From Acetobacter farinalis (GTDB lineage: Bacteria > Pseudomonadota > Alphaproteobacteria > Acetobacterales > Acetobacteraceae), in assembly GCF_011516935.1 (NCBI RefSeq), contig NZ_WOTF01000002.1:186001-250000 (forward strand): 64,000 nt of DNA, in the 5' to 3' direction. The notes beneath the pieces were generated by a model. That model did no database searches. It saw only the letters and a list, made by a program, of their open reading frames with translations, and was not told the DNA's origin. The position numbers and the translations under genes are program-made. Numbering within the stretch: the first letter of the stretch is position 1; every line of letters begins with the position of its first letter. This document shows, in pieces, positions 8,787 through 25,825 of this stretch.

Positions 8787-9287
8787 TTATTTCGGAAGCG
8801 TTTCCTTGGGGCGGGATGCTTTTTCGGCAATGCCACTGGTGCCTTCACGGCGGCGCAGTTCGGCCCATATTTCATCCGGCGTTACACCAGCATCCACCCA
8901 CAGGACGATAAGGTGATATAGCACATCAGCGCTTTCCCCCACCAGAAGGTCTTTGCGGCCGGCAACGGCTTCAATCACGCACTCTACTGCTTCTTCCCCG
9001 AATTTCTGGGCAATTTTATACGTGCCACGAGAGAGAAGGCGGGAGGAATGGCTCAGGCTGGGGTCTGTGCCTTTGCGGCTCAGAACAACGTCATACAGCC
9101 GGTCCAGAACCGTCTCATCCGCAGAGTGGGAGAGGGCATCAATCGGAAGCTCTCTGGATTTCACGGCTTTTTTTGTGATGGCCTTTTTCGCAACAGCCTC
9201 TTTTTTTGCACGGCTTTTAGGTGCGGCCTTCGCGGCTGCCTTGGCGGGGGTCTTGGGTGTGGGTTTTGCGCTGGCTTTCTTGGTCAT
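8787..9287 (-). CDS. hisE: Phosphoribosyl-ATP pyrophosphohydrolase with Lys/Ala-rich N-terminal tail
   Basis: Second step of histidine synthesis, PR-ATP to PR-AMP. 166 aa against the usual ~100-110. Residues ~1-47 are a low-complexity Lys/Ala/Pro tail resembling histone H1-type tails. The catalytic domain then starts at [14 protein letters not shown] and contains the family helix motif [17 protein letters not shown] and [14 protein letters not shown] with the acidic metal-binding residues. The ATG overlaps the hisF stop as ATGA. No closer alternative start with a good ribosome site is evident. Confidence 0.92.
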
Positions 9288-10072
9288 GTGCGTGACTTTG
9301 CCTGAAAAGGTGAAGGGGTGGGGCGTACGGGCAAACCGGCTTCGGCCAGCGCGGATTTGACCTGAGAGACAGTAAACTGGCCGAAATGGAAAACGCTGGC
9401 CGCCAGAAGTCCTGTGGCTCCAGCTTCAGCACCTTCCACAAAGTGTTTCAGTTCTCCCACGCCGCCAGAGGCGACAATCGGGAGCCTGACCGCCTGTGTC
9501 GCGGCTTTCAGCAAAGACAGATCAAAGCCCGAGCGTGTGCCGTCACGGTCCATGGAGGTCAGCAGGATTTCTCCTGCCCCACGCTCCGCGACTTCCTGGC
9601 ACCAGTCAATCACGTCCCGCCCGGTCGGGGTGCGGCCGCCGTGGGTATAGACTTCCCATTTGCCCGTGGAGCTCTGGCGGGCATCCACCCCTACAACCAC
9701 GCACTGGCTCCCGAATTTCCGGGCCGCTTCGTTAATCAGCTCCGGGCGGGAAACGGCAGCGGAATTCATGGCGCATTTATCCGCACCCGCCAGCAGCAGG
9801 CGGCGCATGTCATCCGTTGTGCGGACCCCGCCCCCCACCGTCAGCGGCAGGAAAATCCGCTCCGCCGTGCGGCTGACAACATCCAGAATGGTGTCACGGT
9901 TTTCATGGCTTGCGGTGATGTCCAGAAATGTCAGCTCATCCGCCCCGGCGGCATCATACAGGGCCGCCTGTTCCACCGGATCTCCGGCATCGCGCAGTTC
10001 AACAAAGTTCACGCCCTTTACAACGCGACCATTCTTGACATCCAGACAGGGGATGACGCGAAGCTTAAGCAT
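9284..10072 (-). CDS. hisF: Imidazole glycerol phosphate synthase, cyclase subunit
   Basis: With HisH forms the glutamine-dependent synthase that makes IGP and AICAR. 262 aa (beta/alpha)8 barrel. Catalytic Asp in [13 protein letters not shown] (near residue 11) and the second Asp in [11 protein letters not shown] (near 130) are present, as are phosphate-binding loops [11 protein letters not shown] and [12 protein letters not shown]. The start overlaps the hisA stop by one base (TGATG) and the stop overlaps hisE by four, showing tight coupling. Confidence 0.97.
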
Positions 10073-11418
10073 CAGGCAAGCACCTTCAGCGCCTCGGCAG
10101 GGGAGACGCGGCCATCATACAGGGCGCGGCCGACAATAACGCCTTCAATCCCCGGTGTGTCGTCCGCTGCTTTCCGCAGGGCGGCAAGATGCTCCAGATT
10201 GCCAACCCCGCCACTGGCAATCACGGGGATGGAAACCGTGTTGGCAAGGGTGACGGTCTGCTCGATATCCAGCCCGTCCAGCATGCCATCACGGCTGATT
10301 TCCGTGAAGATAATGGCGGCCACTCCGGCTTCCTGCATCCGCAGGGCCAGTTCCGTGGCCTGCATGTCAGACACTTCGGCCCAGCCTTCTGTGGCCACAT
10401 GGCCGGAGCGGGCGTCAATCCCGGCCACAATCCGGCCCGGGAAGGCCCGGCAGGCTTCCTTGACCAGAGCAGGGTTCTTGACCGCGACAGAGCCGAGGAT
10501 AACCCGCGTGACGCCTGCTTCCAGCCAGAAGGAAATGGCTTTCATATCCCGCAGGCCGCCCCCAAGCTGCATGGGGACGGTGGTGGCTTTCAGAATGGCC
10601 TGCACAGCGGGCACATTGGCGGACTGGCCTGCAAATGCACCGTTCAGATCCACCGCGTGCAGCCATTTGAACCCGGCCTCACACCAGGCGCGGGCCTGTG
10701 CCGCGGGATCATCTGAATAAATGGTTGCGTCATCCATTTCCCCCCGGCGCAGGCGGACACAGGCTCCGTCCTTCAGGTCAATGGCCGGATAGAGTGTGAG
10801 CGGGCGGGAGGAGGAGGGGGAAGATGCTGGCATGTCCGGTGTTTCAACCTGAGGGGAGGAGGAAGGCTCCAGAGGAGGGGCGGAGCGCACGGTATCAAGA
10901 AGTTTGGTGAAGAACAGCCCGCCTACGGTCTGGTCACCCATTCGCGCAAAGTGCGGGTGTGTGCCCCAGTGCTGGAACCCGGCTTTCTGAAACAGGGAAA
11001 TTGCGGGTGTCTGCGTTTCTGCCACATCCATGTTCATCACACGGAAACCCATACTGCGGGCCGCGTTTTCCACTTCATGCAGCAGGGCTGTGCCCAAGCC
11101 CTGATTGCGGGCATAGGGTGCCACGAACAGGTGCATCAGGGTCACGCACATGGCCTGACATTCATTATTGCGCGGGGCGCGCACAAGCTGCGCACAGCCC
11201 ACGATTTCGCCCTTCAGGCGCACCGCGAACAGCATGCGTTCGGGCACCAGAAGCAGGCCCTTGAAGTAGCGCTCAAGAACCTGCCGCCCCTGCGGCTGAA
11301 TCCAGCCAAACCCGCCGCCACCCAGAATGGCGGCATCCGCAGCCTCACACAGGGCCTGAAGATCATCCTCCGTCAGGGAGAGAATGCGCTGGACGGCTTT
11401 GCTTTTAGGCGTGGACAT
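10072..11418 (-). CDS. hisA: GNAT acetyltransferase domain fused to HisA isomerase
   Basis: 448-aa fusion. Residues ~10-165 are a GNAT N-acetyltransferase domain with the acetyl-CoA loop [14 protein letters not shown] and the typical terminal strand [11 protein letters not shown] Ser/Pro-rich linker (~175-203) follows, then a complete HisA barrel (from [15 protein letters not shown] near 207). The barrel keeps both catalytic Asp regions (AIDLKDG and [10 protein letters not shown]) and the phosphate loops MQLGGGLRD and IASGGVGN. HisA converts ProFAR to PRFAR. The start is ATG 11418, overlapping hisH by 14 bases. There is no stop between the domains; an in-frame ATG at 10833 could make free HisA but has a weak ribosome site. 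The acetyl acceptor is unknown. Confidence 0.93.
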
Positions 11419-15105: not shown

Positions 15106-15180
15106 GCGGGCGTAGCTCAGGGGTAGAGCACAACCTTGCCAAGGTTGGGGTCGTGGGTTCGAATCCCATCGCCCGCTCCA
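15106..15180 (+). tRNA. tRNA-Gly (anticodon GCC), integration site of the island
   Basis: 75 nt with encoded CCA. Acceptor GCGGGCG/CGCCCGC, D-arm AGCTCAGGGGTAGAGC, anticodon stem AACC/GGTT with loop TTGCCAA, T-arm GTGGG-TTCGAAT-CCCAT. The 3' 47 bases (15134-15180) are repeated exactly at 25779-25825. The integrated element therefore rebuilt the tRNA 3' half and left the original 3' half at the far end. Confidence 0.97.
15134..15180 (+). repeat. attL: left copy of 47-bp attachment repeat
   Basis: Begins in the anticodon stem and runs to the CCA end of tRNA-Gly. Identity with 25779-25825 is perfect over 47 bases and breaks on both sides. The integrase gene ends 5 bases beyond it, the usual position for a tRNA-targeting tyrosine recombinase. 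Confidence 0.95.
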
Positions 15181-15185
15181 AGGTT

Positions 15186-16316
15186 TTAGCGGTTTTTCAC
15201 CAACCGCTCATCTTGGACTGGAACGCAAATAGCACGCACAATTAAGTTTTCGCGGATCGAACGGGTTGCCGCCCGGTCGATTTCGCATGCGATATCGTCA
15301 ATGGCCTGACGGGCCTGACTTAGATAATCCGGTGCATATTTCGCATATCTCCCTGTTGTTCTGATGTTGGGCATCACATGGCCCAAAAGGCCTGCGATTT
15401 CCAGTTCTGCTACACCACGGCTACGCAGTTCGGTAGCGATGGTATGCCGAATGGTTGTTGGCACAATGTCGTCACTCAGCCGTGCAGCTTTCCGGGCGTT
15501 ACGCCAGCATGCGTTGATCTTCTGTAGCGGTTCGCCTCTGTAGGTGACGATATGGCCGGCTGGAATGGACTGTATCAACGGCCTGAGAAATTCAGGCATG
15601 GCTACAACAGGCCGCCGCTTTTTGGTCTGCTGGCGACCAGGTGGATTGAGGTCAATCAGCTTGCGGTTGAGGTCGCACTGCGGCCGGGTCAGTTCCAGCA
15701 GGGCTTCAGGCCGTGATGCGGTTCCGATCAGTAAAGCAAGGAAGGCTCGGAGATGATCGCTTTCGGCTGCATCCCATAGGCTGGCCATTTCCCTGATTGT
15801 CATGACTCTTTCGCGTGGCTGTCCGTCCTGGACGCTCAGGAAAGGGATGGGGGATTTTATAAGCCCGTTCTTCCAAGCCCAGTTCACAGCAGCCTTGGCT
15901 GCGCCCAGAACGCGCTTTGTCGTTCCGCTCTGGTAGCCATCAGCCTTCATCACGCGCACAAACTGTTGCTGCTTTTCCAACGTGAATTCCGCCACGCTGA
16001 ACTCAGGAATGCGTTCGAGTAGAAGTTCCAGATTTCTGCGCTGCGTTCCTGAACCAACAATATCGCGTCCATGCTTCTCAAAATAGCGCATGCACACTGT
16101 TGCGAGAGGAACATCACGGGGTTCTTCCTGGCGTAATGTGACGTTCAGTGTGACCCATTCCGCAAGCCTGATCTTGGCCTCTTCAAGGCTTTCAGTGCCA
16201 AGTGATGCGCGGCGCGTCTGTCTAGCGTCCTTATCGAACCAGGTGCGGCACCATACTGGGCTGTTGTCACGTTTGCTAAGCCAGTATCCTCCGATTTCGT
16301 ATCGTTCTGCCTGCAT
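15186..16316 (-). CDS. int: Tyrosine site-specific integrase of the island
   Basis: 376 aa. Expected to integrate and excise the element at tRNA-Gly. Core-binding region ~60-160. In the catalytic domain the first Arg is in TASRPEALLELTRP (near 197), the Arg/His box is TTIRHTIATELRSRG (near 290), GHVMPN near 312, and the nucleophile Tyr in GRYAKYAP near 322-325. Starts at ATG 16316, just after the overlapping AlpA-like gene. It is the last gene of the leftward island array and ends 5 bp from attL. Confidence 0.94.
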   Translation of the reverse strand: MQAERYEIGGYWLSKRDNSPVWCRTWFDKDARQTRRASLGTESLEEAKIRLAEWVTLNVTLRQEEPRDVPLATVCMRYFEKHGRDIVGSGTQRRNLELLLERIPEFSVAEFTLEKQQQFVRVMKADGYQSGTTKRVLGAAKAAVNWAWKNGLIKSPIPFLSVQDGQPRERVMTIREMASLWDAAESDHLRAFLALLIGTASRPEALLELTRPQCDLNRKLIDLNPPGRQQTKKRRPVVAMPEFLRPLIQSIPAGHIVTYRGEPLQKINACWRNARKAARLSDDIVPTTIRHTIATELRSRGVAELEIAGLLGHVMPNIRTTGRYAKYAPDYLSQARQAIDDIACEIDRAATRSIRENLIVRAICVPVQDERLVKNR

Positions 16317-16498
16317 GGTTTGCGTTCCTGTGCGCTCAAATATTCTGCTATATGTTCGGCGGTAAAGCGGGGTCTGCCTCCGACTATGACAAAGCCTATC
16401 AGGCGTCTTCGTCGTAGGCGTCTGATGGTATCAACAGACACTCTCAACTCGCGGGCCAGTTCTCGGTCCGTGAGTAATTGCGGCACCATACTGGTCAC
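16145..16498 (-). CDS. AlpA/excisionase-like helix-turn-helix protein
   Basis: Up to 117 aa. The N-terminal ~55 residues form a winged-helix/MerR-like DNA-binding domain: LLTDRELARELRVSVDTIRRLRRRRLIGFVIVGGRPRFTAEHIAEYL. This is the layout of AlpA or Xis proteins, which in satellites direct excision and induction. GTG 16498 overlaps the portal stop as GTGA; ATG 16489 is the alternative. The C-terminal ~58 codons overlap the integrase start by 172 bases in another frame and have unremarkable composition. The functional protein may be essentially the HTH domain. Confidence 0.75.
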   Translation of the reverse strand: MTSMVPQLLTDRELARELRVSVDTIRRLRRRRLIGFVIVGGRPRFTAEHIAEYLSAQERKPCRQNDTKSEDTGLANVTTAQYGAAPGSIRTLDRRAAHHLALKALKRPRSGLRNGSH

Positions 16499-17619
16499 GC
16501 TGCATCCTCCTGCATGGGATTATATCCTTCCTGTTCGCGAATTTCGTTCACGGTCAGGATTTTGTTCTGTATGGCGACACCGTAGGACTGCCACCGGGTA
16601 GCGTAGTCGCCACGCATGAGGCTGCTCATATCAATGACCAGCTCATACGGATTGGACGCACCGAACACGGACCGCTTGAATTCGGCCTCGATCTTGCGCA
16701 CCCACGGCACCAACGTGTTCTGGGCAAACCAGAGGCTGGCCTGCGCCGCGTTGGTGAAGGTGTTGTTGCTGTAATCCTGCACAATCGGCGGTGGCACGCC
16801 GTAGATGCGGCACAGCTCCTGCACGCTGAACTTGCGGCTTTCCAGTGCTTCCGCATCTTCCGGGCTGATGCCTACCGCCTGCCATTTCAGGCCGTTGGGC
16901 AGGACAATTACGCGGCGAGCATTATTGGTGCCACCTGCCCGTTCCTGTAACTGCTGCTTCAGGTCCTTGGCCTGATCGTTGCTGAGTGCGCCGGTCTCAC
17001 TTGAGACGATACCAGACGGCACCACCTGATTCTGCCACATGTTCAGGGAGTAATCCTGAAGGGCTGCGGCACCCGTGAAGACATCCCGCGCACGACTGAG
17101 CCGACTGCGGCCGACAAGGCCATCATCGGAACGGTCGCACAGATGGAATACTTCATCATCCAGCAATGTGCGGGTGACGCCCTGCCACGCCATGACGGTG
17201 TAACGCAGGCGACCAGACTTCAGCCGGTCCACCTGGACACACTGCCACGGAATGGGTGTCAGGGCGGTTGGACGGCCTGCGCCGTCATACTCCACCACCA
17301 TCACGGCGTTGCCGGTCAGCAGGACGCTTGCCAGCGCCCATTCCATCAGATCAGGCCATGTCTGGGTGCGGTTGGGCTGTCTGATCAGCCGCGAAACAGG
17401 ATGGTTCGGCGCTTCCGTTCTGGTATTACCCGCTGTGTTGTAAACGTAGGCATCCAGTGACGCTATGCCGCTGGAAATGGCGTTCACACACGCCAGCACG
17501 GTCGCCAGATTTTCAGGATTACCCGGACCACGCGGAAACCATAGATCTGGCAGAACGGGTTCTGCGGAGACAGCCGCCCGTTTTTCAGGGCGGCCAAAGA
17601 GACGGTCAAGGAAACTCAT
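16495..17619 (-). CDS. Phage portal protein, HK97 family
   Basis: 374 aa. The portal is the dodecameric ring at the capsid vertex through which DNA is packaged and to which tails attach. Family features: NPENLATVLACVNAISSGIASLDAYVY near residue 33, HPVSRLIRQPNRTQTWPDLMEWALASVLLTGNAVM near 75-110, and the C-terminal RKFSVQELCRIYGVPPPIVQD...TFTNAAQASLWFAQNTLVPWVRKIE. The ATG overlaps the protease stop as ATGA and the stop overlaps the AlpA-like start. Length is slightly short for the family (~380-450) but the frame is intact. Confidence 0.93.
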   Translation of the reverse strand: MSFLDRLFGRPEKRAAVSAEPVLPDLWFPRGPGNPENLATVLACVNAISSGIASLDAYVYNTAGNTRTEAPNHPVSRLIRQPNRTQTWPDLMEWALASVLLTGNAVMVVEYDGAGRPTALTPIPWQCVQVDRLKSGRLRYTVMAWQGVTRTLLDDEVFHLCDRSDDGLVGRSRLSRARDVFTGAAALQDYSLNMWQNQVVPSGIVSSETGALSNDQAKDLKQQLQERAGGTNNARRVIVLPNGLKWQAVGISPEDAEALESRKFSVQELCRIYGVPPPIVQDYSNNTFTNAAQASLWFAQNTLVPWVRKIEAEFKRSVFGASNPYELVIDMSSLMRGDYATRWQSYGVAIQNKILTVNEIREQEGYNPMQEDAA

Positions 17620-18152
17620 CTGATCGTCTCCAAGAAGCGGCGGCGCTGCGCCGGTGTCATGATGGTGCTGCGGCTCCGGGCGGAAATTGTTGTATCCGCA
17701 TAGGCTGGAAACGCCTGCACCACGCTGATTTCCACCAGATCGACCGCACGCAGTTCACGCTGGTCTGATGCGGGCCATGCCTCATCCTTGACGCGGAACC
17801 CGAAAGACATACCGCCAAGGTCACGGCGTTCCGCAAGGGCAAGAACATCGCGGCCAAGCTGTGTGTCTGGTATCGCCAGTTCAAAATGAAGGCCGCGTGT
17901 ATCTTCCGCCAGCTTGAGTGTGCCCGATGCCGTGCGGGCCAACAGTCTGGTTGGGTCATGATCGACCAGGGCGAGAATGTCCGGGTTTGCCGTGAGCGTG
18001 CTGGCAAACGCGCCGGAGCGGATGGTTTCGGAAAAGCTGCCGATGCGGGCAGATGCCCCAAACACAGCGGCATAGCCTTCAAGTTTGCGACCGGCGGCGC
18101 GGAATTCCACGCCACACGAACGCCTTTCCACGCTGCCAGTCGCGCCGGTCAT
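17616..18152 (-). CDS. HK97-family prohead protease
   Basis: 178 aa serine protease that removes the capsid scaffold (delta) domain during head maturation. Typical opening GVEFRAAGRKLEGYAAVFG, catalytic His in LALVDHDPTRLLAR near residue 68, and Ser in DLGGMSFGFRV near 117. Coupled on both sides by 4-base overlaps with the capsid and portal genes. Confidence 0.92.
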   Translation of the reverse strand: MTGATGSVERRSCGVEFRAAGRKLEGYAAVFGASARIGSFSETIRSGAFASTLTANPDILALVDHDPTRLLARTASGTLKLAEDTRGLHFELAIPDTQLGRDVLALAERRDLGGMSFGFRVKDEAWPASDQRELRAVDLVEISVVQAFPAYADTTISARSRSTIMTPAQRRRFLETIR

Positions 18153-19444
18153 GCCGTGATACCTGTCAGGGTCAGCAGGGTCTGAGGCCGCACGACAAGC
18201 ACGTCAGCCCGCATCCACGCCACGAAGCCGATCTGTCCGTTTTCGGCGTACAGTTCGTTCAAGACGCTGATCTGAAGGCTGGTCCGCATACCAACATAGA
18301 CCTGGCTGAAATCGCCCATGACGATGGTGCTGGCGTTCTTGTCCGTGCCCTGGTCAACAGGAACTGACGTGGTGGTCAGGCGCGGAATGGAGGAGACGTC
18401 AGCCGGGGCGGAAAGCGGGTTGCCGTTGGAATCCTTGAAACCGCGAATTGCCCGGTTGGTGCGCGGCGCCATGATCATGGCCGTCACCTTGCCCGCGTTC
18501 GCGTTTTCCAGATCAAGCACGCCATCAAGAACCGGGTCCCAGTTGGTCAGCTTGCCGGCCAGTGCGGTTTTCTGGATGCCGGGTGTGTTGACGATGCCAA
18601 GCGGACTGTTCGCAGAGCCATCACCGAACAAAACGGCCTGATCCAGCGCCAATGCACCCGAAGCGGCAAAAGCGGCGCGGATGATGCTATCCACGTTCTG
18701 CCCGTCTTCCAGCAGTTCCCGGCTGATCTTGCAACGAAGCGCCCATGACTTGGCGGTCATCTTCACCTGGTCAAACGTGCTTTCGTCTTCGACAATGGCG
18801 GCATTTTCGGCACGCCATGCACCAACTGGCGTTTTGGTCAGACGGCCAAAAGTCAGGGACTGGCTGGACATGGGCACCGTGCGGCACCCTGCACGGAAAG
18901 AGACGGTGGCGGCGCGCAGTTCATCAAGGATGCCTGCGGCAACAGGAACCGGCACCAACGCACCACCCGAACCGATGCTGCTTTCGGACATGACGCGGCG
19001 TTCAAGTTCCGTCTGCGGACCGCGATACAGCGCACGCAGGAAGCCGCCAAGTCCCAGTTCCTGAGCACGGTTTTCACTGGCAGGCAGGAAAGAAGCCAGA
19101 GAGTGACGGGCTTCCAGAACCGGAACCATCTGCCCTTCCTGAGTGCGCAGCATCAGGCCGTCAAAACTCTCCGGTATCTGTGCCGGTGCAGGAAAACCTG
19201 CAACGCGGATTTCCGGTTGTGCGGGTGCGCCACCGCCCACGCGATTGGCTGGGGCTGTGCGGTCCAGATCGTCAATCTGTGCCTGACGTGCCATGCGGTT
19301 TTCCAGCGTGTTCAGTTCGGTGGACAGTTCAGTCCACCGTGTTTCTGCCTCAGCCGGAAGCGCACCATCCGGGTGTGCTGTGTTCAAGGCGCGCATTTCG
19401 GTTGCGATTTCCGTTTTGCGGGCCTGCATTTCTCGTAGTGTCAT
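18149..19444 (-). CDS. HK97-family major capsid protein
   Basis: 431 aa. The N-terminal ~70 residues are charged and helical (MTLREMQARKTEIATEMRA...), like the HK97 delta/scaffold domain cleaved by the prohead protease. The core contains SESSIGSGGALVPVPVAAGILDEL near residue 155, GWR-like WRAENAAIVEDESTFDQVKM near 210-230, KISRELLEDG near 245, and the A-domain end DFSQVYVGMRTSLQISVLNE near 375. Because an intact capsid gene accompanies portal, protease and terminase, the island can plausibly build its own heads. Confidence 0.94.
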   Translation of the reverse strand: MTLREMQARKTEIATEMRALNTAHPDGALPAEAETRWTELSTELNTLENRMARQAQIDDLDRTAPANRVGGGAPAQPEIRVAGFPAPAQIPESFDGLMLRTQEGQMVPVLEARHSLASFLPASENRAQELGLGGFLRALYRGPQTELERRVMSESSIGSGGALVPVPVAAGILDELRAATVSFRAGCRTVPMSSQSLTFGRLTKTPVGAWRAENAAIVEDESTFDQVKMTAKSWALRCKISRELLEDGQNVDSIIRAAFAASGALALDQAVLFGDGSANSPLGIVNTPGIQKTALAGKLTNWDPVLDGVLDLENANAGKVTAMIMAPRTNRAIRGFKDSNGNPLSAPADVSSIPRLTTTSVPVDQGTDKNASTIVMGDFSQVYVGMRTSLQISVLNELYAENGQIGFVAWMRADVLVVRPQTLLTLTGITA

Positions 19445-19446
19445 GA

Positions 19447-20007
19447 TTATTCAGCATCCTTTACTACGTCATATGCGTAGCTAGTTTCATCAGTAGTGCT
19501 TTTGCGCGAAACGGGAGCAATAACCCCTTCTTCGATAAGCTGCTGAAATACCATCCGAATATCCTCAAGGTGCCCTGAGACAGCTATAGAAATGGATGAA
19601 CGAGCTAATTCATGATCGGGTATTGGCTTTTGTCCTTTGTAATCTACAAGATTACCGTTTTTATCTTCAAAAATACCAATCCCTGAAGGATATGAAAAAT
19701 TGTGAGGAAACCGGACTTCTACAAGTTTGAATCCAGCAGGCACATCAGAACTGGCCCACATTCTCACGTTACAGGCCATTCTACCGGCCCAGTTATGGTT
19801 AAAGCCCACGTCACAGAGATGAAAGAATACTCGAAGACCAAGGATATCGAGTTCCTGGAAAATCCGACGGCTACCCGGCACAGTGGTGGGTGCGCAGTTA
19901 TAGAGTTTTTTGGAAATCGCCTCGTTAATCGCAAGTTGCGTTGTTCTATTGATGGCTGCGGCCACTTTTGCTGGGACAGGCGGGATTGGTGGAAGTTTTT
20001 TAGACAT
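19447..20007 (-). CDS. Island protein of unknown function (186 aa)
   Basis: Not recognised. A Pro/Lys N-terminus (MSKKLPPIPPVPAKVAAAI) is followed by a mixed alpha/beta-looking sequence with several aromatic residues and no membrane segment or known catalytic motif. It ends 2 bases before the capsid start, in the same direction. The DNA is visibly more AT-rich than the capsid and terminase genes around it, which suggests separate acquisition. Its position in the packaging-gene array makes it either a head accessory protein or cargo such as a phage-interference factor. Both are speculation. Confidence 0.65.
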   Translation of the reverse strand: MSKKLPPIPPVPAKVAAAINRTTQLAINEAISKKLYNCAPTTVPGSRRIFQELDILGLRVFFHLCDVGFNHNWAGRMACNVRMWASSDVPAGFKLVEVRFPHNFSYPSGIGIFEDKNGNLVDYKGQKPIPDHELARSSISIAVSGHLEDIRMVFQQLIEEGVIAPVSRKSTTDETSYAYDVVKDAE

Positions 20008-20082
20008 TATGGAACACCTAGAAAGCTATAGTGATAAACCATAGCTTTCTCTCACAAACCAATGGAGTTTGTCCATAGCTTT

Positions 20083-20544
20083 TTAAGCCAATGCCGCGGA
20101 TAGGCGGTGCAGGTCCGAAATAATTGATATTGCCAACTGCACCTCATCCGAAGTTTCTTCCATTACAAAAGCATCGCAATATTCAGGAAATTCTATGTTG
20201 GCTACTTCCGTTTTTGCTTTTAGGTCATGTAGGTTTTTTGCGGGAGTATGCGCCAGAAAGGCGATTGCAGCCCACATTGCTTCACATGCAGCAAGGCTCC
20301 GCTCGTTGTTGTCCTGATGGTGAGGGTGGCCTGGTGTTGCAGCGGGTTCGTCGCCAATGCGTTCTACATCGGCACGAGCAGAGAAATACTCGTCCCGGGC
20401 TTTGATAATCGGGCTTTTCCCTTCCGGCTTCGCGGTAGGCGCGGCGGTCAGGGTTTCGGGTTTGGCAAAACCGGCGGCGGCGATGCCTGCCAGCGCGGTG
20501 GCTCCTATGGCAGGGAAAATGTCACGGCGGGACAATGAGCGCAT
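20083..20544 (-). CDS. Island protein with twin-arginine-like signal (153 aa)
   Basis: Not recognised as a family. From ATG 20544 the N-terminus is MRSLSRRDIFPAIGATALAG: a twin-arginine SRRDIF motif followed by a hydrophobic Ala/Gly stretch and an AFAKP-like end, as in Tat or simple export signals. The mature part is helical and acidic, with HPHHQDNN near residue 85. A longer start at 20583 would add 13 residues. Exported proteins are unusual in a packaging module and suggest a moron-type role at the cell envelope (inference). Confidence 0.6.
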   Translation of the reverse strand: MRSLSRRDIFPAIGATALAGIAAAGFAKPETLTAAPTAKPEGKSPIIKARDEYFSARADVERIGDEPAATPGHPHHQDNNERSLAACEAMWAAIAFLAHTPAKNLHDLKAKTEVANIEFPEYCDAFVMEETSDEVQLAISIISDLHRLSAALA

Positions 20545-20598
20545 GTGTGCGGCTCCTCTAGCAAGATTGCCGGAAGCATACACTGTTCAAGGCGCATA

Positions 20599-20683
20599 CT
20601 CCGGGGGTTGAACACCTGGCTAGAGACAGGCCGATAAGGCTTTGGAGGTTGCCCTCTTGGACATACCCTCATCGCCCCCGGAG
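20599..20683. promoter_or_regulatory. Inverted repeat in divergent island intergenic region
   Basis: CTCCGGGGG at 20599-20607 and its exact complement CCCCCGGAG at 20675-20683 lie in the 259-bp gap between the leftward Tat-type gene and the only rightward island gene (20804). A TATATATGG stretch near 20730 could be part of a promoter for the latter. Possible operator or cruciform; function unverified. Confidence 0.35.
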
Positions 20684-20803
20684 CGAATTCTATTATGCGG
20701 ATTTCTGCTCTCGTGCAGGGCCGCCCTAGCCTATATATGGAGTGTTCAAGCTCCGTTGCTATGACTGCCAATTTTAAATGTTAGTGTCAAGAAGGAATAT
20801 TAA

Positions 20804-21037
20804 ATGGTTAAAAAAGAAGAAGCGGAAAGAGCTTTCCAGAAAATGTTTGGGGATTGGGCTGCTGAATCTGGCATTCAGCAGCCCTACGGTAGCAATCTTA
20901 TCAGCTACTATGACTTTAAGGCATGGGTCGATAGAAAGGGATACAGCCACTATTTCGAATTCAGAAGCACTGGTGGAGCTGATGCCTGTGTAGAGCGATG
21001 GTTTGACGCTTACTTTAAGCAGATATGGATGAACTAA
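20804..21037 (+). CDS. Small island protein of unknown function (77 aa), opposite orientation
   Basis: The only rightward gene of the island. 77 aa, rich in aromatic and charged residues (FGDWAAESG, YYDFKAWVDRKGYSHYFEF, ERWFDAYFKQIWMN). ATG 20804 is preceded by AAGGA at a spacing of about 8 bases, which supports translation. The DNA is AT-rich compared with neighbours. It ends convergently, overlapping the terminase stop by 4 bases. No family recognised; composition resembles small cytosolic phage regulatory or defence-related proteins, but that is only an impression. Confidence 0.6.
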   Translation: MVKKEEAERAFQKMFGDWAAESGIQQPYGSNLISYYDFKAWVDRKGYSHYFEFRSTGGADACVERWFDAYFKQIWMN

Positions 21038-22668
21038 AAATCCAGAACCGTGACCATCATGGCCTTGAGTGCTGGTGCCTGGGCAGCAGTGCCGACTGCA
21101 ATCACGGCGGCGACCAGTGGGTCTATGCGGCCACGGGCGCGTTGTTTGGACAGTTTTCTGTTGCCCGCCGGGTCCACGTCCAAGGCAGCATTGGAGACAG
21201 CCCAGCGCAACAGTGGGTTGCCGCCGTGCCTGATGGTCGCCTGTAGGACGGAACCCTCAAAGGCCGTAATGGCAGGACTCTGGTCCTTGAAGCCCATGCC
21301 AATCGGCTTCATGGGCAGGGCGATGCCCTCGCGGTCACATACAGCCAGAAAATCCGTCAGGCACCAGCGGTCAGACGCGATGGACACAACGTCCAGTCCT
21401 TCGATCGCCTGGGCAATCCAAACGGCCAGCCATGCCCGGTCAATCGCTCGCCCTGGTATCAATTCGATTAACCCAGCCGAAACCCACTCGGCATACGGTG
21501 CGCGATCCTCCGCTTGCTTCGCCTGGATAAGTTCACTGGGCAGGAACGCCGTGACCTTCAGCTTTCCCGTCTCGGGCCAGTAGAAAGAGAAGGCCGTCAG
21601 ATCACCCGCGCCGGATGCCAGATCAAGGCCACAGTAACACGGGCCTGATGCCTCAGCATTGCCTGCACAGGCGTCCCAGTCATCAGGGCGCAGGAAGCGC
21701 ACGTCAGCCGCCACGGGCTGGTTGAGCGTGTAGGAGCGGAAGGCGGCTTCCTGACTGGGCACGCGCATGGCCTGCATTGCCTGAGAGCGGATATCTTCAA
21801 GGCTGCGGAATGTTCCCAGGGCCGGGTTTGCCATACGCCACGTTTCCTCCGACCATGGGTCTGCATCCATCGGTGCGGACCAGACGAAGGACTTGAAGGT
21901 GCGGTCAGGGAACGTGCCGTCCGCCACGCTGGCACCGTAGCGCAGCAGCTCTTCGAGCGGGTTGTCAGCATCGGGTGAGCGGGTGGAAATGCCCAGCAGC
22001 AGGCTTTCCCGGTGTGCGCCGCCACCCGTTTTCAGGGCGTCGAACAGATCCCGGTCACGCCACTGGGCAACCTCGTCTGCAATGGCGAATGTGGGTGACA
22101 GGCCGTGCGCCTTTCGGGCATCGGCGGACAGCGCCTTGTAGATTGAGCCTGTCACGGCATCTTCCACAGTTTTGTTGAAGGCACGAACCACCAGCCGCGC
22201 AGCAAGGTGAGGCTGTTCCAGGGCGAAGGCGACCATCTCATCAAACACGATAGACGCCTGCCCCCGGTCTGCTGCGGCGCTCAGCACCTGTCCACGCCTT
22301 ACGGCTTCCGGCCCGCACAGATGGGCAAGCGCCAAGGCTGAGGCTAAACCTGTTTTGCCATTCTTGCGGCCCATACTGATCACGCCTGTGCGGACGAAGC
22401 GCAGGCCGTCCTCGTCGGTCTCATACAAGGCGCGGATGATATCTTTCTGCCAGCCATCCAGCCGCATGGGCTGGCCTGCCAGCGCCCCGCTGGTCACGGT
22501 GAGGCGTTCTATCCAGCAGATCAGGCGTTCCGCCCGTGTCTCGCCAGTTAAGGGCTGCTCTGCGGCAAACCCTGCTGGCGTGGTGCCGGGTGCATCGCCA
22601 AAGAGCGGCAATGGTGCCGGGGTCTTTGGCGATGACACTGGCTTTGCACCGGGTCCACGAAGGCCCAT
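21034..22668 (-). CDS. terL: Phage terminase large subunit (HK97/YmfN-like)
   Basis: 544-aa packaging motor. ATPase domain: Walker A GRKNGKTGLASALAL near residue 99, Walker B-like FAIADEVAQWRDRD near 199, and coupling motif GISTRSPDADNPLEELL near 225. The C-terminal nuclease region contains CYCGLDLASGAGDLTAFSF near 340 with acidic residues. The first ~25 residues (MGLRGPGAKPVSSPKTPAPL) resemble N-termini of P27-type small terminase subunits. No separate small subunit gene was found in the island. The start ATG 22668 is followed by this segment. Confidence 0.92.
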   Translation of the reverse strand: MGLRGPGAKPVSSPKTPAPLPLFGDAPGTTPAGFAAEQPLTGETRAERLICWIERLTVTSGALAGQPMRLDGWQKDIIRALYETDEDGLRFVRTGVISMGRKNGKTGLASALALAHLCGPEAVRRGQVLSAAADRGQASIVFDEMVAFALEQPHLAARLVVRAFNKTVEDAVTGSIYKALSADARKAHGLSPTFAIADEVAQWRDRDLFDALKTGGGAHRESLLLGISTRSPDADNPLEELLRYGASVADGTFPDRTFKSFVWSAPMDADPWSEETWRMANPALGTFRSLEDIRSQAMQAMRVPSQEAAFRSYTLNQPVAADVRFLRPDDWDACAGNAEASGPCYCGLDLASGAGDLTAFSFYWPETGKLKVTAFLPSELIQAKQAEDRAPYAEWVSAGLIELIPGRAIDRAWLAVWIAQAIEGLDVVSIASDRWCLTDFLAVCDREGIALPMKPIGMGFKDQSPAITAFEGSVLQATIRHGGNPLLRWAVSNAALDVDPAGNRKLSKQRARGRIDPLVAAVIAVGTAAQAPALKAMMVTVLDF

Positions 22669-22744
22669 TTTTCAAAACCTCAATCTGAAACTAACTATTT
22701 TTGTGACCCCCGAACGGTCGCACCCCCGTAGCTCTGAGAGATTT

Positions 22745-23074
22745 TCAGGCCACATAATAGACGCGCCAAGGATCAAGGCCGGTCAGTTGATCGGTCCATC
22801 TGGTCAGGCCAAAGCTGGTTGATCCTACGCCTTCGCACGTGTCTTCCGTGATGGAGCGGTCACGGCCAGCCTGATGGTAGATGGCGGCGGCAATGTCCAG
22901 CACGGTGCGGGTGACTGTCTGCGGAACGGGTGACAGGGTGGTCAGGTCCTGCTGGCAATAGTCGGAGGCAATGCCCCATGCCTGGGTGAGAATGTCATTC
23001 AGTCGGTCATCCCTGCTATCGTCTGGCAGGTCCAGTTCGGTGCGCAGGGTGCTGATCAGGTTTGTGTTGGTCAT
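22745..23074 (-). CDS. Head-tail connector protein (HK97 gp6-like)
   Basis: 109 aa. Short helical protein with the gp6-like pattern: LISTLRTELDLPDDSRDDRLNDILTQAWGIASDYCQQDL near residues 5-45 and ALDIAAAIYHQAG-type helix (here VLDIAAAIYHQAGRDR). Connectors bind beneath the portal and provide the tail docking surface. In satellites this would let helper tails attach. ATG 23074 overlaps the HNH stop as ATGA, preferred over GTG 23086. Confidence 0.82.
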   Translation of the reverse strand: MTNTNLISTLRTELDLPDDSRDDRLNDILTQAWGIASDYCQQDLTTLSPVPQTVTRTVLDIAAAIYHQAGRDRSITEDTCEGVGSTSFGLTRWTDQLTGLDPWRVYYVA

Positions 23075-23349
23075 TTTGAATTCCACCAGTGTGTTGGGTC
23101 ATTGGGTTTGCCAGAAGCATCACAGCCCTTGAGCCATGGTTCATTGCCTTGGCGGCGCATGTTGTGGTGCTGGATGCACAGGCCGCGCAGGTTGGACAGG
23201 CTGTCCGCACCGCCTTTGCTTCTGGGTGTGATGTGATCGGCCACAACGGACCGCCGGGTGCATCCGGCAACCGTGCAGACTGGATCACGCTTGAGGCAGG
23301 CAGCGCGTAGTCTGCGCCATGCCTGGGTGCGGTAAAACGGTTCGCTCAT
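23071..23349 (-). CDS. HNH endonuclease (packaging-associated)
   Basis: 92 aa. Typical small phage HNH: FYRTQAWRRLRAACLKRDPVC, then CTRRSVVADHITPRSKGGADSLSNLRGLCIQHHNMR, with the paired Cys residues and the DHI...N...HH catalytic/metal set. In HK97-like systems an HNH protein works with the terminase at the cos/pac cleavage step. Coupled by ATGA overlaps to genes on both sides. Confidence 0.93.
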   Translation of the reverse strand: MSEPFYRTQAWRRLRAACLKRDPVCTVAGCTRRSVVADHITPRSKGGADSLSNLRGLCIQHHNMRRQGNEPWLKGCDASGKPNDPTHWWNSK

Positions 23350-23618
23350 GACCGCGCCTTCCGTGCCATGCGCCGTAAAGCCGCGACGATCTCAGACTTG
23401 TCCTGGTGAAACTTCTCTGGATCACGCCGGTCTATGGTCAGCCGCTGTACGGCATTGGCGAGGTCATCAAGCGGGGTTTGGTGACACGGTGACGCATGGT
23501 GACGCACTTTCTTATATAATGGTTTTCCGTGTGTGTGCGGGTGCGTGCGCGTATGGGGGTTATATAGGAGAAATGCGTCACCATGCGTCACCGCGTCACC
23601 ACTTGGTTTCGTGCTCAT
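23346..23618 (-). CDS. Small island ORF spanning the putative origin (90 aa)
   Basis: The C-terminal half (LDDLANAVQRLTIDRRDPEKFHQDKSEIVAALRRMARKARS) looks like a genuine helical protein and is coupled to HNH through ATGA. The N-terminal half is His/Thr/Pro-rich low complexity and is encoded by the iteron inverted repeat at 23480-23600. Either the protein tolerates origin DNA within its coding sequence, or translation starts further in. ATG 23618 overlaps the primase stop by 4 bases. Confidence 0.55.
   Translation of the reverse strand: MSTKPSGDAVTHGDAFLLYNPHTRTHPHTHGKPLYKKVRHHASPCHQTPLDDLANAVQRLTIDRRDPEKFHQDKSEIVAALRRMARKARS
23480..23600. repeat. Inverted iteron array, candidate replication origin of the island
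   Basis: Left arm 23480-23519 and right arm 23560-23600 are near-perfect inverted complements (about 40 bp each). They are separated by a 40-bp spacer rich in GTGT/GCGT. Each arm carries three copies of GGTGAC (starts 23480, 23488, 23498; mirrored as GTCACC at 23577, 23587, 23595) with spacings 8 and 10 reversed in the mirror arm. Each arm ends in an AT-rich TATATAA toward the spacer. It lies immediately downstream of the primase/VapE gene, as replication origins do in other PICI-type satellites. Confidence 0.8.
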
Positions 23619-25639
23619 GACTGTTTCTCCCAATATCTGACTCCACCGTGACCTCTGTTCCCTCGTCTCCAACCAAGCCGCTCCATGATCTTGGCAATCC
23701 GTCTTTGCTCAGCTACTCCGATCTTCTTGTTTTCAAAGGCCAAAGCGTCATAAGCCACGGCTTGGATTGTGACTTTCGGGCGAAGGTCTAGATACTTGGC
23801 AATCAGTCCTTCCCATTCATCGACTTCGAACCGCTCTTCCTGTTCGGGTCTGATGATGTGGCGTTCAAAGTCACCGTCCGGCCACCATTGTTCACCTTTG
23901 CGGAACGCATCCACGGCCTCAGCCAGAAGCTGGTCACGATCCTGCGCCAATAATTTCGTGTCTATCTTGCCGACCTTCACCGGCCAGTACCGGCGTCCGC
24001 CAGTCTCGTCGCTGAGATACACGGATTTATTGGTTGTTCCGATCAGGATGCACTGGCGTGGTTCGACCACTTCCATTCGGCCATAGGGCGGCCTGTAGCG
24101 TTCTGTTGTGCGGGTAAGAAAGGACTTGAGCAGTTCGTTCTCGGCCTTGCCCAATGCGGATAGTTCCGCAATTTCGATCACCCATTTGCCGCGTAGATGC
24201 ACTGGCACATCCTTGCCGGTTTTCAGGTCTGGCAGACTGTCCGAATACCAGTCACCGCCAAGGATAGCGCAGGCAGTGGATTTTCTGGCTCCCTGCTGGC
24301 CTTCCAGCACAAGCATGTAATCCATCTTGCAGCCGGGCTTCATGATGCGGGCAATCAGGCCGATCAGGAACATGCGCCCGATGCCCTGGGTGTAATCCGT
24401 GAGATCGGCACCGATATAGTCAGTCAGCCACGTATCAAGGCGGGGTATGCCATCCCATTTCAGGCCGTTAAGGTGGGCACGAACTGGATGAAAGCGGCGC
24501 TCATAAGCAACCCGGCTGATGGCCTGAAAGGTCACATCCTTGGAAATCCGGCGCAGACCAGCAAGTTGCAACGCCTCTTGCACCACCGTCACATCTTCAT
24601 CCGTTAGCGGTCGCGCCTTGAACGGCTCCGCCTGCGGACCGAGTTGCTTCATGAGGAACGGCATGCACTGCATTTCATCCAGTGCGAAGCTGCTGGAAAA
24701 TTGTTCATCCGCCCGCAAGGCCAGCAGCACGTTCGCCACGTTGGGGATGGGCTGTCCACGGTCATCGACCTGACAGTCATCAAGCCATGCCGGTCTGAGG
24801 ATGTGTTTCGGTTCCAAGGCTCCGGCATCATAGTCCGGCGCTGCCTGAACCACAGCTTCCAGATCGGCCACGGTCCTGCCTGCGGCCAGCCAGTCGAACA
24901 CATCGCCCTTCTCCGGCAGATCAGGAAGGTTCACGACTCGGATGCGTGCTGCAACGCCCTGAATGGCCTTGGCGACCATCTTGGCATGTTTCTGCCCAGG
25001 CGAATCGTTGTCGGGCAGAATGACCGTATCCGCACCGCGCATGTATCTGGTGCAGTCTGGTTTCCACTTGCCTGCCCCGCCTGGGCTGCATGTCGCTGTC
25101 AGGCCAAGGCTGTGCAGCTTGTCCGCTGATTTCTCGCCTTCCACCACATAGATGGTCTGCTTCTGCTGTATGGCTTCAATCAGCCCCGGCAAACGATACG
25201 GGATGCGGGGCAAGCCTTTGGTTGACCAGGACCAGCCACCATCAGGCAGCGGCCTGCGCTGGCGAAAGTCTTTCGGGTCCATCCGACATATCTGGAACAG
25301 GAATTCACCATCTTCCGTATGGTAGTCGTAGCCTTGGACGATTCGCGGTTTGACGGCGGGTTTCTGTTCCGGGCGGTCTATATGGCCGTGTTCTTGCAGC
25401 CATTTGACCGCATCCGGCTTGGTCAGGCTGAGGTGACGCATGACCAGATCAATGGTCCCGCCGCCTTCACCAGCCTCGTTGTCATACCAGGTGCCCTTGG
25501 TCAGATCGACTGACAGGCTGCCCCGTGTCCCGAAGCGTAGTTCCGTCTTGCTTGACGCTGATGAATTCGGCTCGCCCAGAAGAGCAAGCGCCACGTCCTT
25601 CATGCACGCCTTGAACGCGCTGTTTATGGAGCCGCTCAT
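23615..25639 (-). CDS. Primase-helicase-like replication protein (Toprim + VapE domain)
   Basis: 674 aa. The N-terminal region has a primase-like fold ending in a Toprim domain: IYVVEGEKSADKL near residue 160 (catalytic Glu) and DTVILPDNDSPGQKHA near 205 (DxD-type). The C-terminal virulence-associated E ATPase has Walker A LEGQQGARKSTACAILGG near 446, then WVIEIAELSALGKAENELLKSFLT and the sensor-like ILIGTTNKSVYLSDETGGRRYWPV. It is expected to initiate autonomous replication of the excised island at a nearby origin. It is the first gene of the leftward array, 140 bp from attR. Confidence 0.92.
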   Translation of the reverse strand: MSGSINSAFKACMKDVALALLGEPNSSASSKTELRFGTRGSLSVDLTKGTWYDNEAGEGGGTIDLVMRHLSLTKPDAVKWLQEHGHIDRPEQKPAVKPRIVQGYDYHTEDGEFLFQICRMDPKDFRQRRPLPDGGWSWSTKGLPRIPYRLPGLIEAIQQKQTIYVVEGEKSADKLHSLGLTATCSPGGAGKWKPDCTRYMRGADTVILPDNDSPGQKHAKMVAKAIQGVAARIRVVNLPDLPEKGDVFDWLAAGRTVADLEAVVQAAPDYDAGALEPKHILRPAWLDDCQVDDRGQPIPNVANVLLALRADEQFSSSFALDEMQCMPFLMKQLGPQAEPFKARPLTDEDVTVVQEALQLAGLRRISKDVTFQAISRVAYERRFHPVRAHLNGLKWDGIPRLDTWLTDYIGADLTDYTQGIGRMFLIGLIARIMKPGCKMDYMLVLEGQQGARKSTACAILGGDWYSDSLPDLKTGKDVPVHLRGKWVIEIAELSALGKAENELLKSFLTRTTERYRPPYGRMEVVEPRQCILIGTTNKSVYLSDETGGRRYWPVKVGKIDTKLLAQDRDQLLAEAVDAFRKGEQWWPDGDFERHIIRPEQEERFEVDEWEGLIAKYLDLRPKVTIQAVAYDALAFENKKIGVAEQRRIAKIMERLGWRRGNRGHGGVRYWEKQS

Positions 25640-25778
25640 GACGATACCTCGTTGTCATGGCGACTCGACTTTGGTAGAACGCTGATAGCACGCAACACCG
25701 TAGCGACTCCTTGGTGTTTCGTGCGTCTTTTGCATACCTTTGCTTTATTAAGTGATTGATTTCACTGTATAAAGCATC

Positions 25779-25825
25779 CCTTGCCAAGGTTGGGGTCGTG
25801 GGTTCGAATCCCATCGCCCGCTCCA
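25779..25825 (+). repeat. attR: right copy of 47-bp attachment repeat
   Basis: Exact repeat of 15134-15180, representing the original 3' end of tRNA-Gly without its 5' half. It marks the right boundary of the island. Confidence 0.95.

What the first reader, a model, noticed from the sequence alone, without database searches (positions are those of the whole stretch)
15134..25825. Capsid-forming satellite island (cf-PICI type) in tRNA-Gly of an acetic acid bacterium
A 10.7-kb element bounded by perfect 47-bp repeats encodes a full HK97-type head set (portal, protease, capsid, TerL, connector, HNH) plus primase/VapE, AlpA-like protein and integrase. It encodes no tail, lysis or lysogeny control. 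Known cf-PICIs use this strategy: build their own heads and use helper tails. I know them mainly from enteric and Gram-positive hosts, so an Acetobacteraceae example would extend the range. All genes are intact and chained by ATGA overlaps, which argues for function.
Basis: partly seen in the sequence, partly recalled or inferred. Interest (0 to 1): 0.85.

Follow-up and report, generated by a model that had tools for sequence, protein, structure and literature searches.

The report
Head-building phage satellite with RNA switch
A 10.7-kb mobile element in an acetic acid bacterium carries its own virus-head genes but no recognised tail genes, has many similar small relatives in Alphaproteobacteria, and contains a conserved antisense-RNA-like switch in front of its head genes.

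Summary
In detail: 15134-25825, perfect 47-bp repeats (the first is the 3' end of tRNA-Gly), with integrase, AlpA-like HTH, VapE, HNH, TerL, connector, capsid, protease and portal; no tail or lysis family. Relatives are small elements with the same gene set, not full prophages. The nearest sit in tRNA-Phe with another integrase; 13 delimited elements measure 9.1-10.9 kb; two relatives have the terminal repeats of circles. It works like a capsid-forming PICI, but no separate TerS was recognised and module order differs from EcCIEDL933, so I file it as a related, permuted alphaproteobacterial lineage.

The claim of no lysogeny control fails. Between TerL and the head genes lies a ~190-nt structured RNA (20564-20756, minus) with the logic of phage P1 C4 antisense RNA: segments a' and b' are each complementary to a site upstream (a1, b1) and one downstream (a2, b2), a2 lying on the Shine-Dalgarno of the next gene. 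Pairing is kept through sequence change (0 of 1000 permutations). Models hit 16 of 299 family and 29 of 385 class genomes, own included. Rfam 15 does not call it here; the core of related copies resembles sRNA-Xcc1. The regulatory effect is inferred.

The parts
15134..15180 (+). att repeat inside the 3' end of tRNA-Gly(gcc) 15106-15180
25779..25825 (+). att repeat, distal copy
15186..16316 (-). tyrosine integrase
   Evidence: PF00589 1.1e-11, phrog_1 2.1e-37
16145..16498 (-). AlpA/excisionase-like HTH_17 protein
   Evidence: PF12728 8.3e-9, phrog_66 6e-11
16495..17619 (-). portal
   Evidence: PF04860 1.2e-92
17616..18152 (-). prohead protease S78
   Evidence: PF04586 4.9e-43
18149..19444 (-). 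HK97-fold major capsid
   Evidence: PF05065 3.3e-43
19447..20007 (-). orfX, unknown. The same slot holds a MerR_1 protein in L064; the slot proteins of seven other relatives gave no family match
20083..20544 (-). orfY, 153 aa, first gene after the RNA, with a Tat-like N-terminus (by eye); no family match
20564..20756 (-). C4-like antisense RNA unit. b1 20743-20749, a1 20725-20731, outer stem 20675-20683/20599-20607, a' 20619-20626, b' 20608-20614, b2 20584-20590
   Evidence: positions read off
20555..20562 (-). a2 target site overlapping the Shine-Dalgarno of orfY
20785..20790 (-). TTGACA box 5' of the RNA; TTGAC is present in 15 of 15 satellite copies inspected
   Evidence: no consensus promoter was called there
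20804..21037 (+). 77-aa ORF in a ~230-bp stretch absent from the 7 relatives compared; doubtful gene
21034..22668 (-). terminase large subunit, HK97 type
22745..23086 (-). gp6-like head-tail connector
   Evidence: PF05135 3.5e-6
23071..23349 (-). HNH endonuclease
23346..23672 (-). small ORF (start uncertain) with a ~38-aa C-terminal motif conserved before HNH
23615..25639 (-). VapE-type primase/helicase
   Evidence: PF05272 2e-77

Best explanation
An integrated phage satellite that makes and fills its own small HK97-type heads and needs a helper phage for tails and lysis. Shown: attachment at tRNA-Gly; head, packaging, primase, excision and integration genes; no tail or lysis family; a family of similar tail-less elements of about 10.5 kb in Alphaproteobacteria. 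Inferred: excision by Int with the AlpA-like protein, VapE-primed replication, packaging of unit genomes by its own TerL/HNH, and joining to helper tails. The second half of the operon (orfY, orfX, capsid, protease, portal, alpA, int) is preceded by a C4-like antisense RNA unit. In the quiet state the RNA's a' segment would cover the Shine-Dalgarno of orfY and b' the neighbouring b2 hairpin, and through polarity or termination keep head and excision genes off; a helper signal would lift this. The base pairing is supported by covariation; the regulatory outcome is inferred from phage P1.
For: Profile hits. Capsid relatives in viral contigs: 6 of 6 on contigs of 7.6-12.6 kb; TerL relatives: 33 of 34 on contigs up to 16.7 kb. 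Order TerL..protease-portal in 54 of 115 loci classified, 12 with the EcCIEDL933 order, 7 with phage order, 1 other, 41 incomplete. tRNA-Phe relatives with a 15-16-bp att and an integrase without BLAST match to the own one. 13 elements: mean 10,455, sd 489, range 9,094-10,877 bp. Terminal repeats of circles: L045 24 bp, L065 121 bp. No tail or lysis family among 31 ORFs I chose from the own and 8 related elements. Portal tree: 67 satellite rows (54 A + 13 B with EcCIEDL933) split from 9 phage-order rows, SH-aLRT 96. RNA: 55 pairs, 86.4% of cells paired (shuffles 72.9), covariation 0.391 (shuffles 0.162; slid at most 0.116); b1 x b' at least 6 Watson-Crick pairs in 29 of 30, b2 region x b' in 26 of 30, a1 x a' at least 5 in 27 of 30, 0 of 1000 permutations each; a' x downstream at least 6 in 27 of 30, 25 of them at the SD-like stretch. 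P1 record: a1, b1, c4, a2, b2, icd, ant; same topology in Rfam C4.
Against: No excision, particle or RNA was observed. Short viral contigs can be fragments, so contig length alone is weak evidence. No separate TerS recognised (Terminase_4 in 0 of 21 records), one connector only, no head-closure protein. No helper candidate in the own draft genome for the four families sought. The TerL tree mixes groups: some type-B TerLs lie with phages, EcCIEDL933 lies with phage-order rows on a long branch; both trees are quick searches with long-branch warnings. In class-level copies a' x downstream reaches 6 pairs in only 7 of 21, 4 of them at the usual place. The RNA models match no other type-A satellite tested, such as L063, L064, L065. 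The own copy alone folds only moderately better than shuffles (z -2.1; 5 of 200 as good). No consensus sigma-70 promoter at the TTGACA box. orfY has no match to any antirepressor or other family.
Confidence: 0.78

Rival explanations
1. A decaying HK97-type prophage that lost tail, lysis and repressor genes.
For: TerL is 40% identical to HK97 phage TerL over 87% of its length.
Against: Precise att borders; intact ORFs; near relatives share the same reduced gene set and size at two different tRNA sites; cap-prot-portal order differs from the phage order TerL-portal-prot-cap of HK97; all 214 phage records that match the capsid are under 60% identity, the 20 rows shown 27-28%.
Confidence: 0.06
2. 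A self-sufficient tail-less virus or plasmid-like element that spreads as heads alone or by other means; integration is optional.
For: Circle-like relative L065 in Paracraurococcus without an integrase match; circle-like L045.
Against: Phage-type portal and gp6-like connector imply a tail; no lysis or receptor-binding gene recognised; published cf-PICIs use helper tails (PMC10690885 passages).
Confidence: 0.1
3. The conserved stretch before orfY is a ligand-binding or protein-binding mRNA leader, or a DNA site (cos, origin), not a C4-like antisense RNA.
For: In 25 of 30 copies an ATG ORF with an SD-like stretch begins 18-24 nt downstream; structured; several copies are followed by unrelated ORFs.
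Against: Duplicated targets (a1/a2, b1/b2) each covarying with one antisense segment are hard to explain otherwise; G-U pairs in helices favour RNA; the core of related copies resembles an sRNA seen on Northern blots.
Confidence: 0.18

Closest known systems
Capsid-forming PICIs, prototype EcCIEDL933 (E. coli); that the roxA-phoQ element of EDL933 is EcCIEDL933 is my identification from its content and recall
   Same: Int, HTH protein, primase, capsid-protease-portal in that order, connector, HNH, TerL; no tail genes annotated; portals fall on one side of the tree.
   Different: That element has an annotated TerS (P27) and head-closure protein, order pri-cap-prot-portal-closure-conn-HNH-TerS-TerL, genes spanning 14.4 kb; here pri-HNH-conn-TerL-RNA-cap-prot-portal-alpA-int, 10.6 kb, no separate TerS recognised, RNA unit.
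Phage P1/P7 C4 antisense RNA immunity region (Rfam RF01695, RF03163)
   Same: Two antisense segments in an RNA whose outer stem encloses two hairpins; duplicated complementary sites upstream and downstream, the downstream ones before the next gene.
   Different: Order is b1-a1-core-b2-a2 instead of a1-b1-c4-a2-b2; my model does not match P1 and RF01695 does not match here; the next gene is not a recognised antirepressor.
sRNA-Xcc1 (Rfam RF02221)
   Same: In 11 related loci scanned the core matches in 6: L291 55.0 bits (threshold 53), five others 24-37 bits with E-values 0.006 to 7.7; similar stem topology.
   Different: The window copy is not matched; target sites and the long-range pairings are not part of that family.
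cf-PISP satellite plasmids of Vibrio crassostreae
   Same: Head genes, HNH, terminases, no tail, small circles (PMC13230959 passages); compare L065.
   Different: Those are episomal, from Vibrio, with an Stl-like regulator.

Membership tests
cf-PICI | Encodes capsid, protease and portal | tested here: met
cf-PICI | Head-tail connectors | tested here: inconclusive
   one gp6-like connector; no closure protein recognised
cf-PICI | TerL and HNH | tested here: met
cf-PICI | TerS (definition from PMC10690885 passages) | tested here: not met
   no separate TerS gene: no Pfam TerS in element ORFs; Terminase_4 0 of 21 records. Against this: the HNH protein matches phrog_4581, labelled terminase small subunit, at 1.1e-8 over its HNH part, below six HNH families, and the HTH protein matches phrog_57 (TerS) at 0.077. 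A divergent TerS cannot be excluded
cf-PICI | Integrase, AlpA-like HTH, primase | tested here: met
cf-PICI | No tail or lysis genes | tested here: met
   16 element ORFs; 31 ORFs of own and relatives
cf-PICI | Gene order as in EcCIEDL933 (a usual, not a published defining, feature) | tested here: not met
cf-PICI | Mobilised in own capsids with helper tails | not testable with these tools
   needs bench work
C4 antisense RNA (RF01695) | Score above the Rfam threshold | tested here: not met
   control P1 68.8 bits
C4 antisense RNA (RF01695) | a' and b' complementary to duplicated flanking sites, downstream ones at the RBS | tested here: met
C4 antisense RNA (RF01695) | Represses translation of the downstream gene | not testable with these tools
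sRNA-Xcc1 (RF02221) | Score above the Rfam threshold | tested here: not met
   not in the window copy; 1 of 11 related loci scanned passes (L291)

The most novel reading that the evidence does not exclude
A widespread alphaproteobacterial RNA class, covering the orphan Rfam family sRNA-Xcc1, is a C4-type antisense switch with duplicated a/b target sites; head-forming satellites of acetic acid bacteria use it in place of a protein repressor to hold their capsid and excision genes silent, and its a/b sequences, which differ between elements, set immunity groups among co-resident satellites and phages.
Probability: 0.5. Interest if true: 0.8.

Novelty: new variant of a known kind. Interest (0 to 1): 0.64.

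Why it matters
It extends head-building satellites to a large alphaproteobacterial group with a permuted gene order and no recognised separate TerS, in a host genus used in vinegar fermentation. The RNA unit gives these elements a testable control circuit, suggests a mechanism for Rfam's sRNA-Xcc1 family, and predicts sequence-coded immunity groups from the a/b segments alone.

Tried and rejected
The CFT073 PICI and the EDL933 thrW region were fetched as references and were the wrong elements; the head-gene element of EDL933 was then located at roxA-phoQ. Plasmid search of the whole element, megablast only: no match. Packaging RNA, riboswitch, cos and origin readings of the RNA came first; dropped as lead explanation when the duplicated a/b sites were recognised. 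orf88 and orf110 dropped as genes. A consensus promoter scan gave nothing at the expected place. I first took the slot before the capsid (orfX) for a general HTH gene; only L064's passes a family model, so that is withdrawn. Alqurainy 2023, de Sousa 2023 and the 2011 sRNA-Xcc1 paper are not held; what I say of cf-PICIs comes from passages of PMC10690885, PMC10803314, PMC13230959, PMC11389934. PADLOC on 31 ORFs gave two weak mads_1 matches and one SspD.
Full report
OBSERVATION. The element runs from 15134 to 25825, with 47-bp identical repeats, the first lying in tRNA-Gly(gcc) 15106-15180. Read on the minus strand the genes are VapE primase, a small ORF, HNH, connector, TerL, (RNA), orfY, orfX, capsid, protease, portal, HTH_17/AlpA-like, integrase. 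No tail, lysis or phage-repressor family was found in the 16 element ORFs scanned. The 47-mer occurs once in 40 of 49 genus genomes, twice or more in 8 including the own one, never in 1. Joining the flanks gives a site that aligns past the join by 76-100 bp in 2 of 9 empty sites; in the other 7 the alignment ends within 17 bp of it, so there the outer flank is simply not shared. The host is very probably Acetobacter: G179 is of the same genus by kinship, and its contig has the length of the Acetobacter pomorum contig of L062 (66,515).

RELATIVES. IMG/VR: 6 capsid relatives, all on 7.6-12.6-kb contigs; 34 TerL relatives, 33 on contigs up to 16.7 kb, one (33% identity) on a 41.9-kb contig. Such contigs can be fragments; the gene maps and delimited elements below are the better evidence. 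Of the 115 loci from these scans, some of which are one element seen in two collections, 54 have TerL..protease-portal order (A; a capsid match in 47, HNH in 51), 12 the order of EcCIEDL933 (B), 7 phage order (C), 1 (L045) is a circularly permuted A, 41 lack one of the genes or run off the contig. Named A-type hosts are mostly Alphaproteobacteria (acetic acid bacteria, Roseomonads, Rhizobiales, Caulobacterales, sphingomonads), with others such as Salinisphaera and a planctomycete MAG; the viral contigs name no host. In the genus 10 of 49 genomes match the capsid, 5 of them (own included) at 90-100% identity; among 150 family genomes 20 match and the best other match is 33% identical.

INTEGRATION AND SIZE. 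The close relatives lie in tRNA-Phe(gaa) with a 15-16-bp repeat, and their integrases gave no BLAST match to the own one. In the Acetobacter ones TerL is 85-88%, capsid 89-92%, protease 80-94% and portal 79-80% identical to the window; in L089, L063 and L064 26-79%. So integration modules have been exchanged around a stable cassette. Thirteen delimited elements (11 by att repeats, 2 by terminal repeats) average 10,455 bp (sd 489, 9,094-10,877). Constant size is expected if a small head limits the genome, but is not proof.

CIRCLES. L045 (viral contig) has a 24-bp terminal repeat within the portal gene and reads through it: a 10,167-bp circle with an integrase-like ORF. L065 (Paracraurococcus ruber) has a 121-bp terminal repeat: a 10,080-bp circle with a DUF3987 primase and no integrase match with eight integrases on either strand (best 28 residues, E 0.32); a search of its genome with a stretch near the contig end returned only that contig.

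TREES. Portal, 76 rows: 54 type-A and 13 type-B rows, EcCIEDL933 among the latter, lie on one side of a branch (SH-aLRT 96) from 9 phage-order or phage rows. One B row, L043, lies inside A. Few phages were sampled and several branches are long. TerL, 75 rows: own TerL sits in a 13-row clade of acetic acid bacteria, Roseomonads and viral contigs; other A groups, B groups and phages intermix, and EcCIEDL933 lies elsewhere on a long branch. So head module and terminase have different histories.

TerS. PMC10690885 (passages) defines cf-PICIs by capsid, protease, portal, connectors, both terminase subunits and HNH. No Pfam TerS was found in the element's ORFs, and Terminase_4, the P27 family to which the record assigns the EcCIEDL933 TerS, matched 0 of 21 genomes and records including 16 viral satellite records, while ringing in 3 of 14 controls (the EDL933 handle was not searched). 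Against this, the HNH protein matches phrog_4581, labelled terminase small subunit, at 1.1e-8 over its HNH part, below six HNH families, and the HTH protein matches phrog_57 weakly (0.077). A small ORF upstream of HNH has a ~38-aa motif found in 26 of 54 A, 0 of 12 B, 0 of 7 C, 3 of 41 incomplete loci and in L045; whether it replaces TerS is unknown.

THE RNA. Comparing relatives showed a noncoding stretch between TerL and orfY, conserved with non-triplet indels. RNAalifold on nine sequences: 48 pairs, 9 with compensatory changes. Two long-range pairings that a nested model cannot contain have 6-7 Watson-Crick pairs in 9 of 9 elements, with 6 and 4 sequence variants; 0 of 2000 permutations reach the totals. 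A covariance model (R1) found copies in 16 of 299 family genomes, own included; 30 matches from 37 chosen loci were aligned. In these, loop H1 x b' has at least 6 Watson-Crick pairs in 29 of 30, the last hairpin x b' in 26 of 30, linker x loop a' at least 5 in 27 of 30; permuting partners never reached the totals in 1000 trials. The model contains no pseudoknots, so these pairings are independent of how the copies were found. On a 23-sequence alignment with 55 pairs, 86.4% of cells pair (shuffles 72.9), 41 pairs change on both sides (26.2), covariation 0.391 (0.162 shuffled, at most 0.116 slid); the version with the downstream hairpin as partner gives 0.388. Six of the matched loci besides the close relatives are satellites with the RNA between the packaging side and the capsid (L215, L217, L219, L240, L246, L247); most of the rest carry no satellite head genes nearby.

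MECHANISM OF THE RNA. The loop of the first hairpin and that of the last are the same sequence, both complementary to one internal segment; the loop of the a' hairpin is complementary to a site upstream and to one downstream (27 of 30 with 6 or more pairs, 25 of these at the SD-like stretch of the next ORF; over all 51 copies 313 pairs against 217 permuted, maximum 240). In 25 of 30 an ATG ORF of 60 or more codons with SD-like sequence begins 18-24 nt after the RNA. This is the layout annotated in phage P1: a1, b1, c4, a2, b2, icd, ant, with repression of icd/ant translation noted in the record (review passages PMC12197685). Rfam's C4 consensus shows the same topology: outer stem, two hairpins, single-stranded segment. 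My model does not match P1, nor C4 the window. Rfam sRNA-Xcc1 matches the core in 6 of 11 related loci scanned, L291 above threshold, five below it and weak. sRNA-Xcc1 is a Northern-confirmed 88-nt RNA (PMC2996969 passages), located upstream of symE in Xanthomonas integron cassettes, 'suggesting a divergent regulatory mechanism' (PMC12444791 passages). One paper in the library holds both names; in the passages I saw they are separate table rows (PMC12189769). I saw no statement that they are one kind. Some downstream ORFs in other loci look like phage antirepressors by eye (no family search). A similar RNA-based immunity in satellite P4 (CI RNA) is recalled, from no call. The second model (R2) matched 29 of 385 class genomes at E up to 1e-3, own included; of 21 copies examined there, a' x downstream reaches 6 pairs in 7, 4 at the usual place, so distant copies may work differently or be misaligned.

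HOW IT WORKS, COMMITTED READING. Satellite that builds heads and steals tails: about 0.8. RNA structure real: about 0.95. RNA acts as C4-like repressor of orfY and, through it, of head and excision genes: about 0.55. No helper is visible in the own draft genome (four families only).

NOVELTY. [quoted passage not shown] The listings of two searches, satellites with Alphaproteobacteria and PICIs with Acetobacter, 3 papers each, show no title on this family; I did not read all of them, and the founding papers are not held, so earlier listing cannot be excluded.

Noticed in passing
L065 1-10201 (Paracraurococcus ruber): Head-gene satellite contig with a 121-bp terminal repeat (10,080-bp circle) and no integrase match, like a satellite plasmid.
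   Followed up: partly
L240 2864-11888, L215, L217: Related elements with the RNA and head genes in which no TerL, HNH or connector match was found by tblastn: a possible subtype that borrows packaging too.
   Followed up: no
L026 2577-3497: ORF between the small ORF and HNH of a near-identical satellite; among the 31 ORFs scanned one matches PAPS reductase (phrog_424) and one SspD, and by its sequence it is very probably this one.
   Followed up: no
window 20772-21003: About 230 bp after TerL missing from the 7 relatives compared, holding a plus-strand 77-aa ORF.
   Followed up: no
G150 C1:1976168 and 2062156; G166 C1:98397 and 184384: The same tRNA-Gly 47-mer twice about 86 kb apart: other, larger islands may use this site.
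   Followed up: no
L089/L030: Capsid 76% but TerL 51% identical to the window: head and terminase modules are mosaic.
   Followed up: no
L275 249-307: Hammerhead type II ribozyme above the Rfam threshold about 1.7 kb from a copy of the RNA, with a weaker match at 580-636.
   Followed up: no
window 20083-20544 and relatives: orfY and its homologues in the 6 relatives compared keep a Tat-like N-terminus while the rest diverges.
   Followed up: partly
L242 8357-8544 and 8661-8844: Two copies of the RNA in tandem; the second has lost b1/b' pairing.
   Followed up: no
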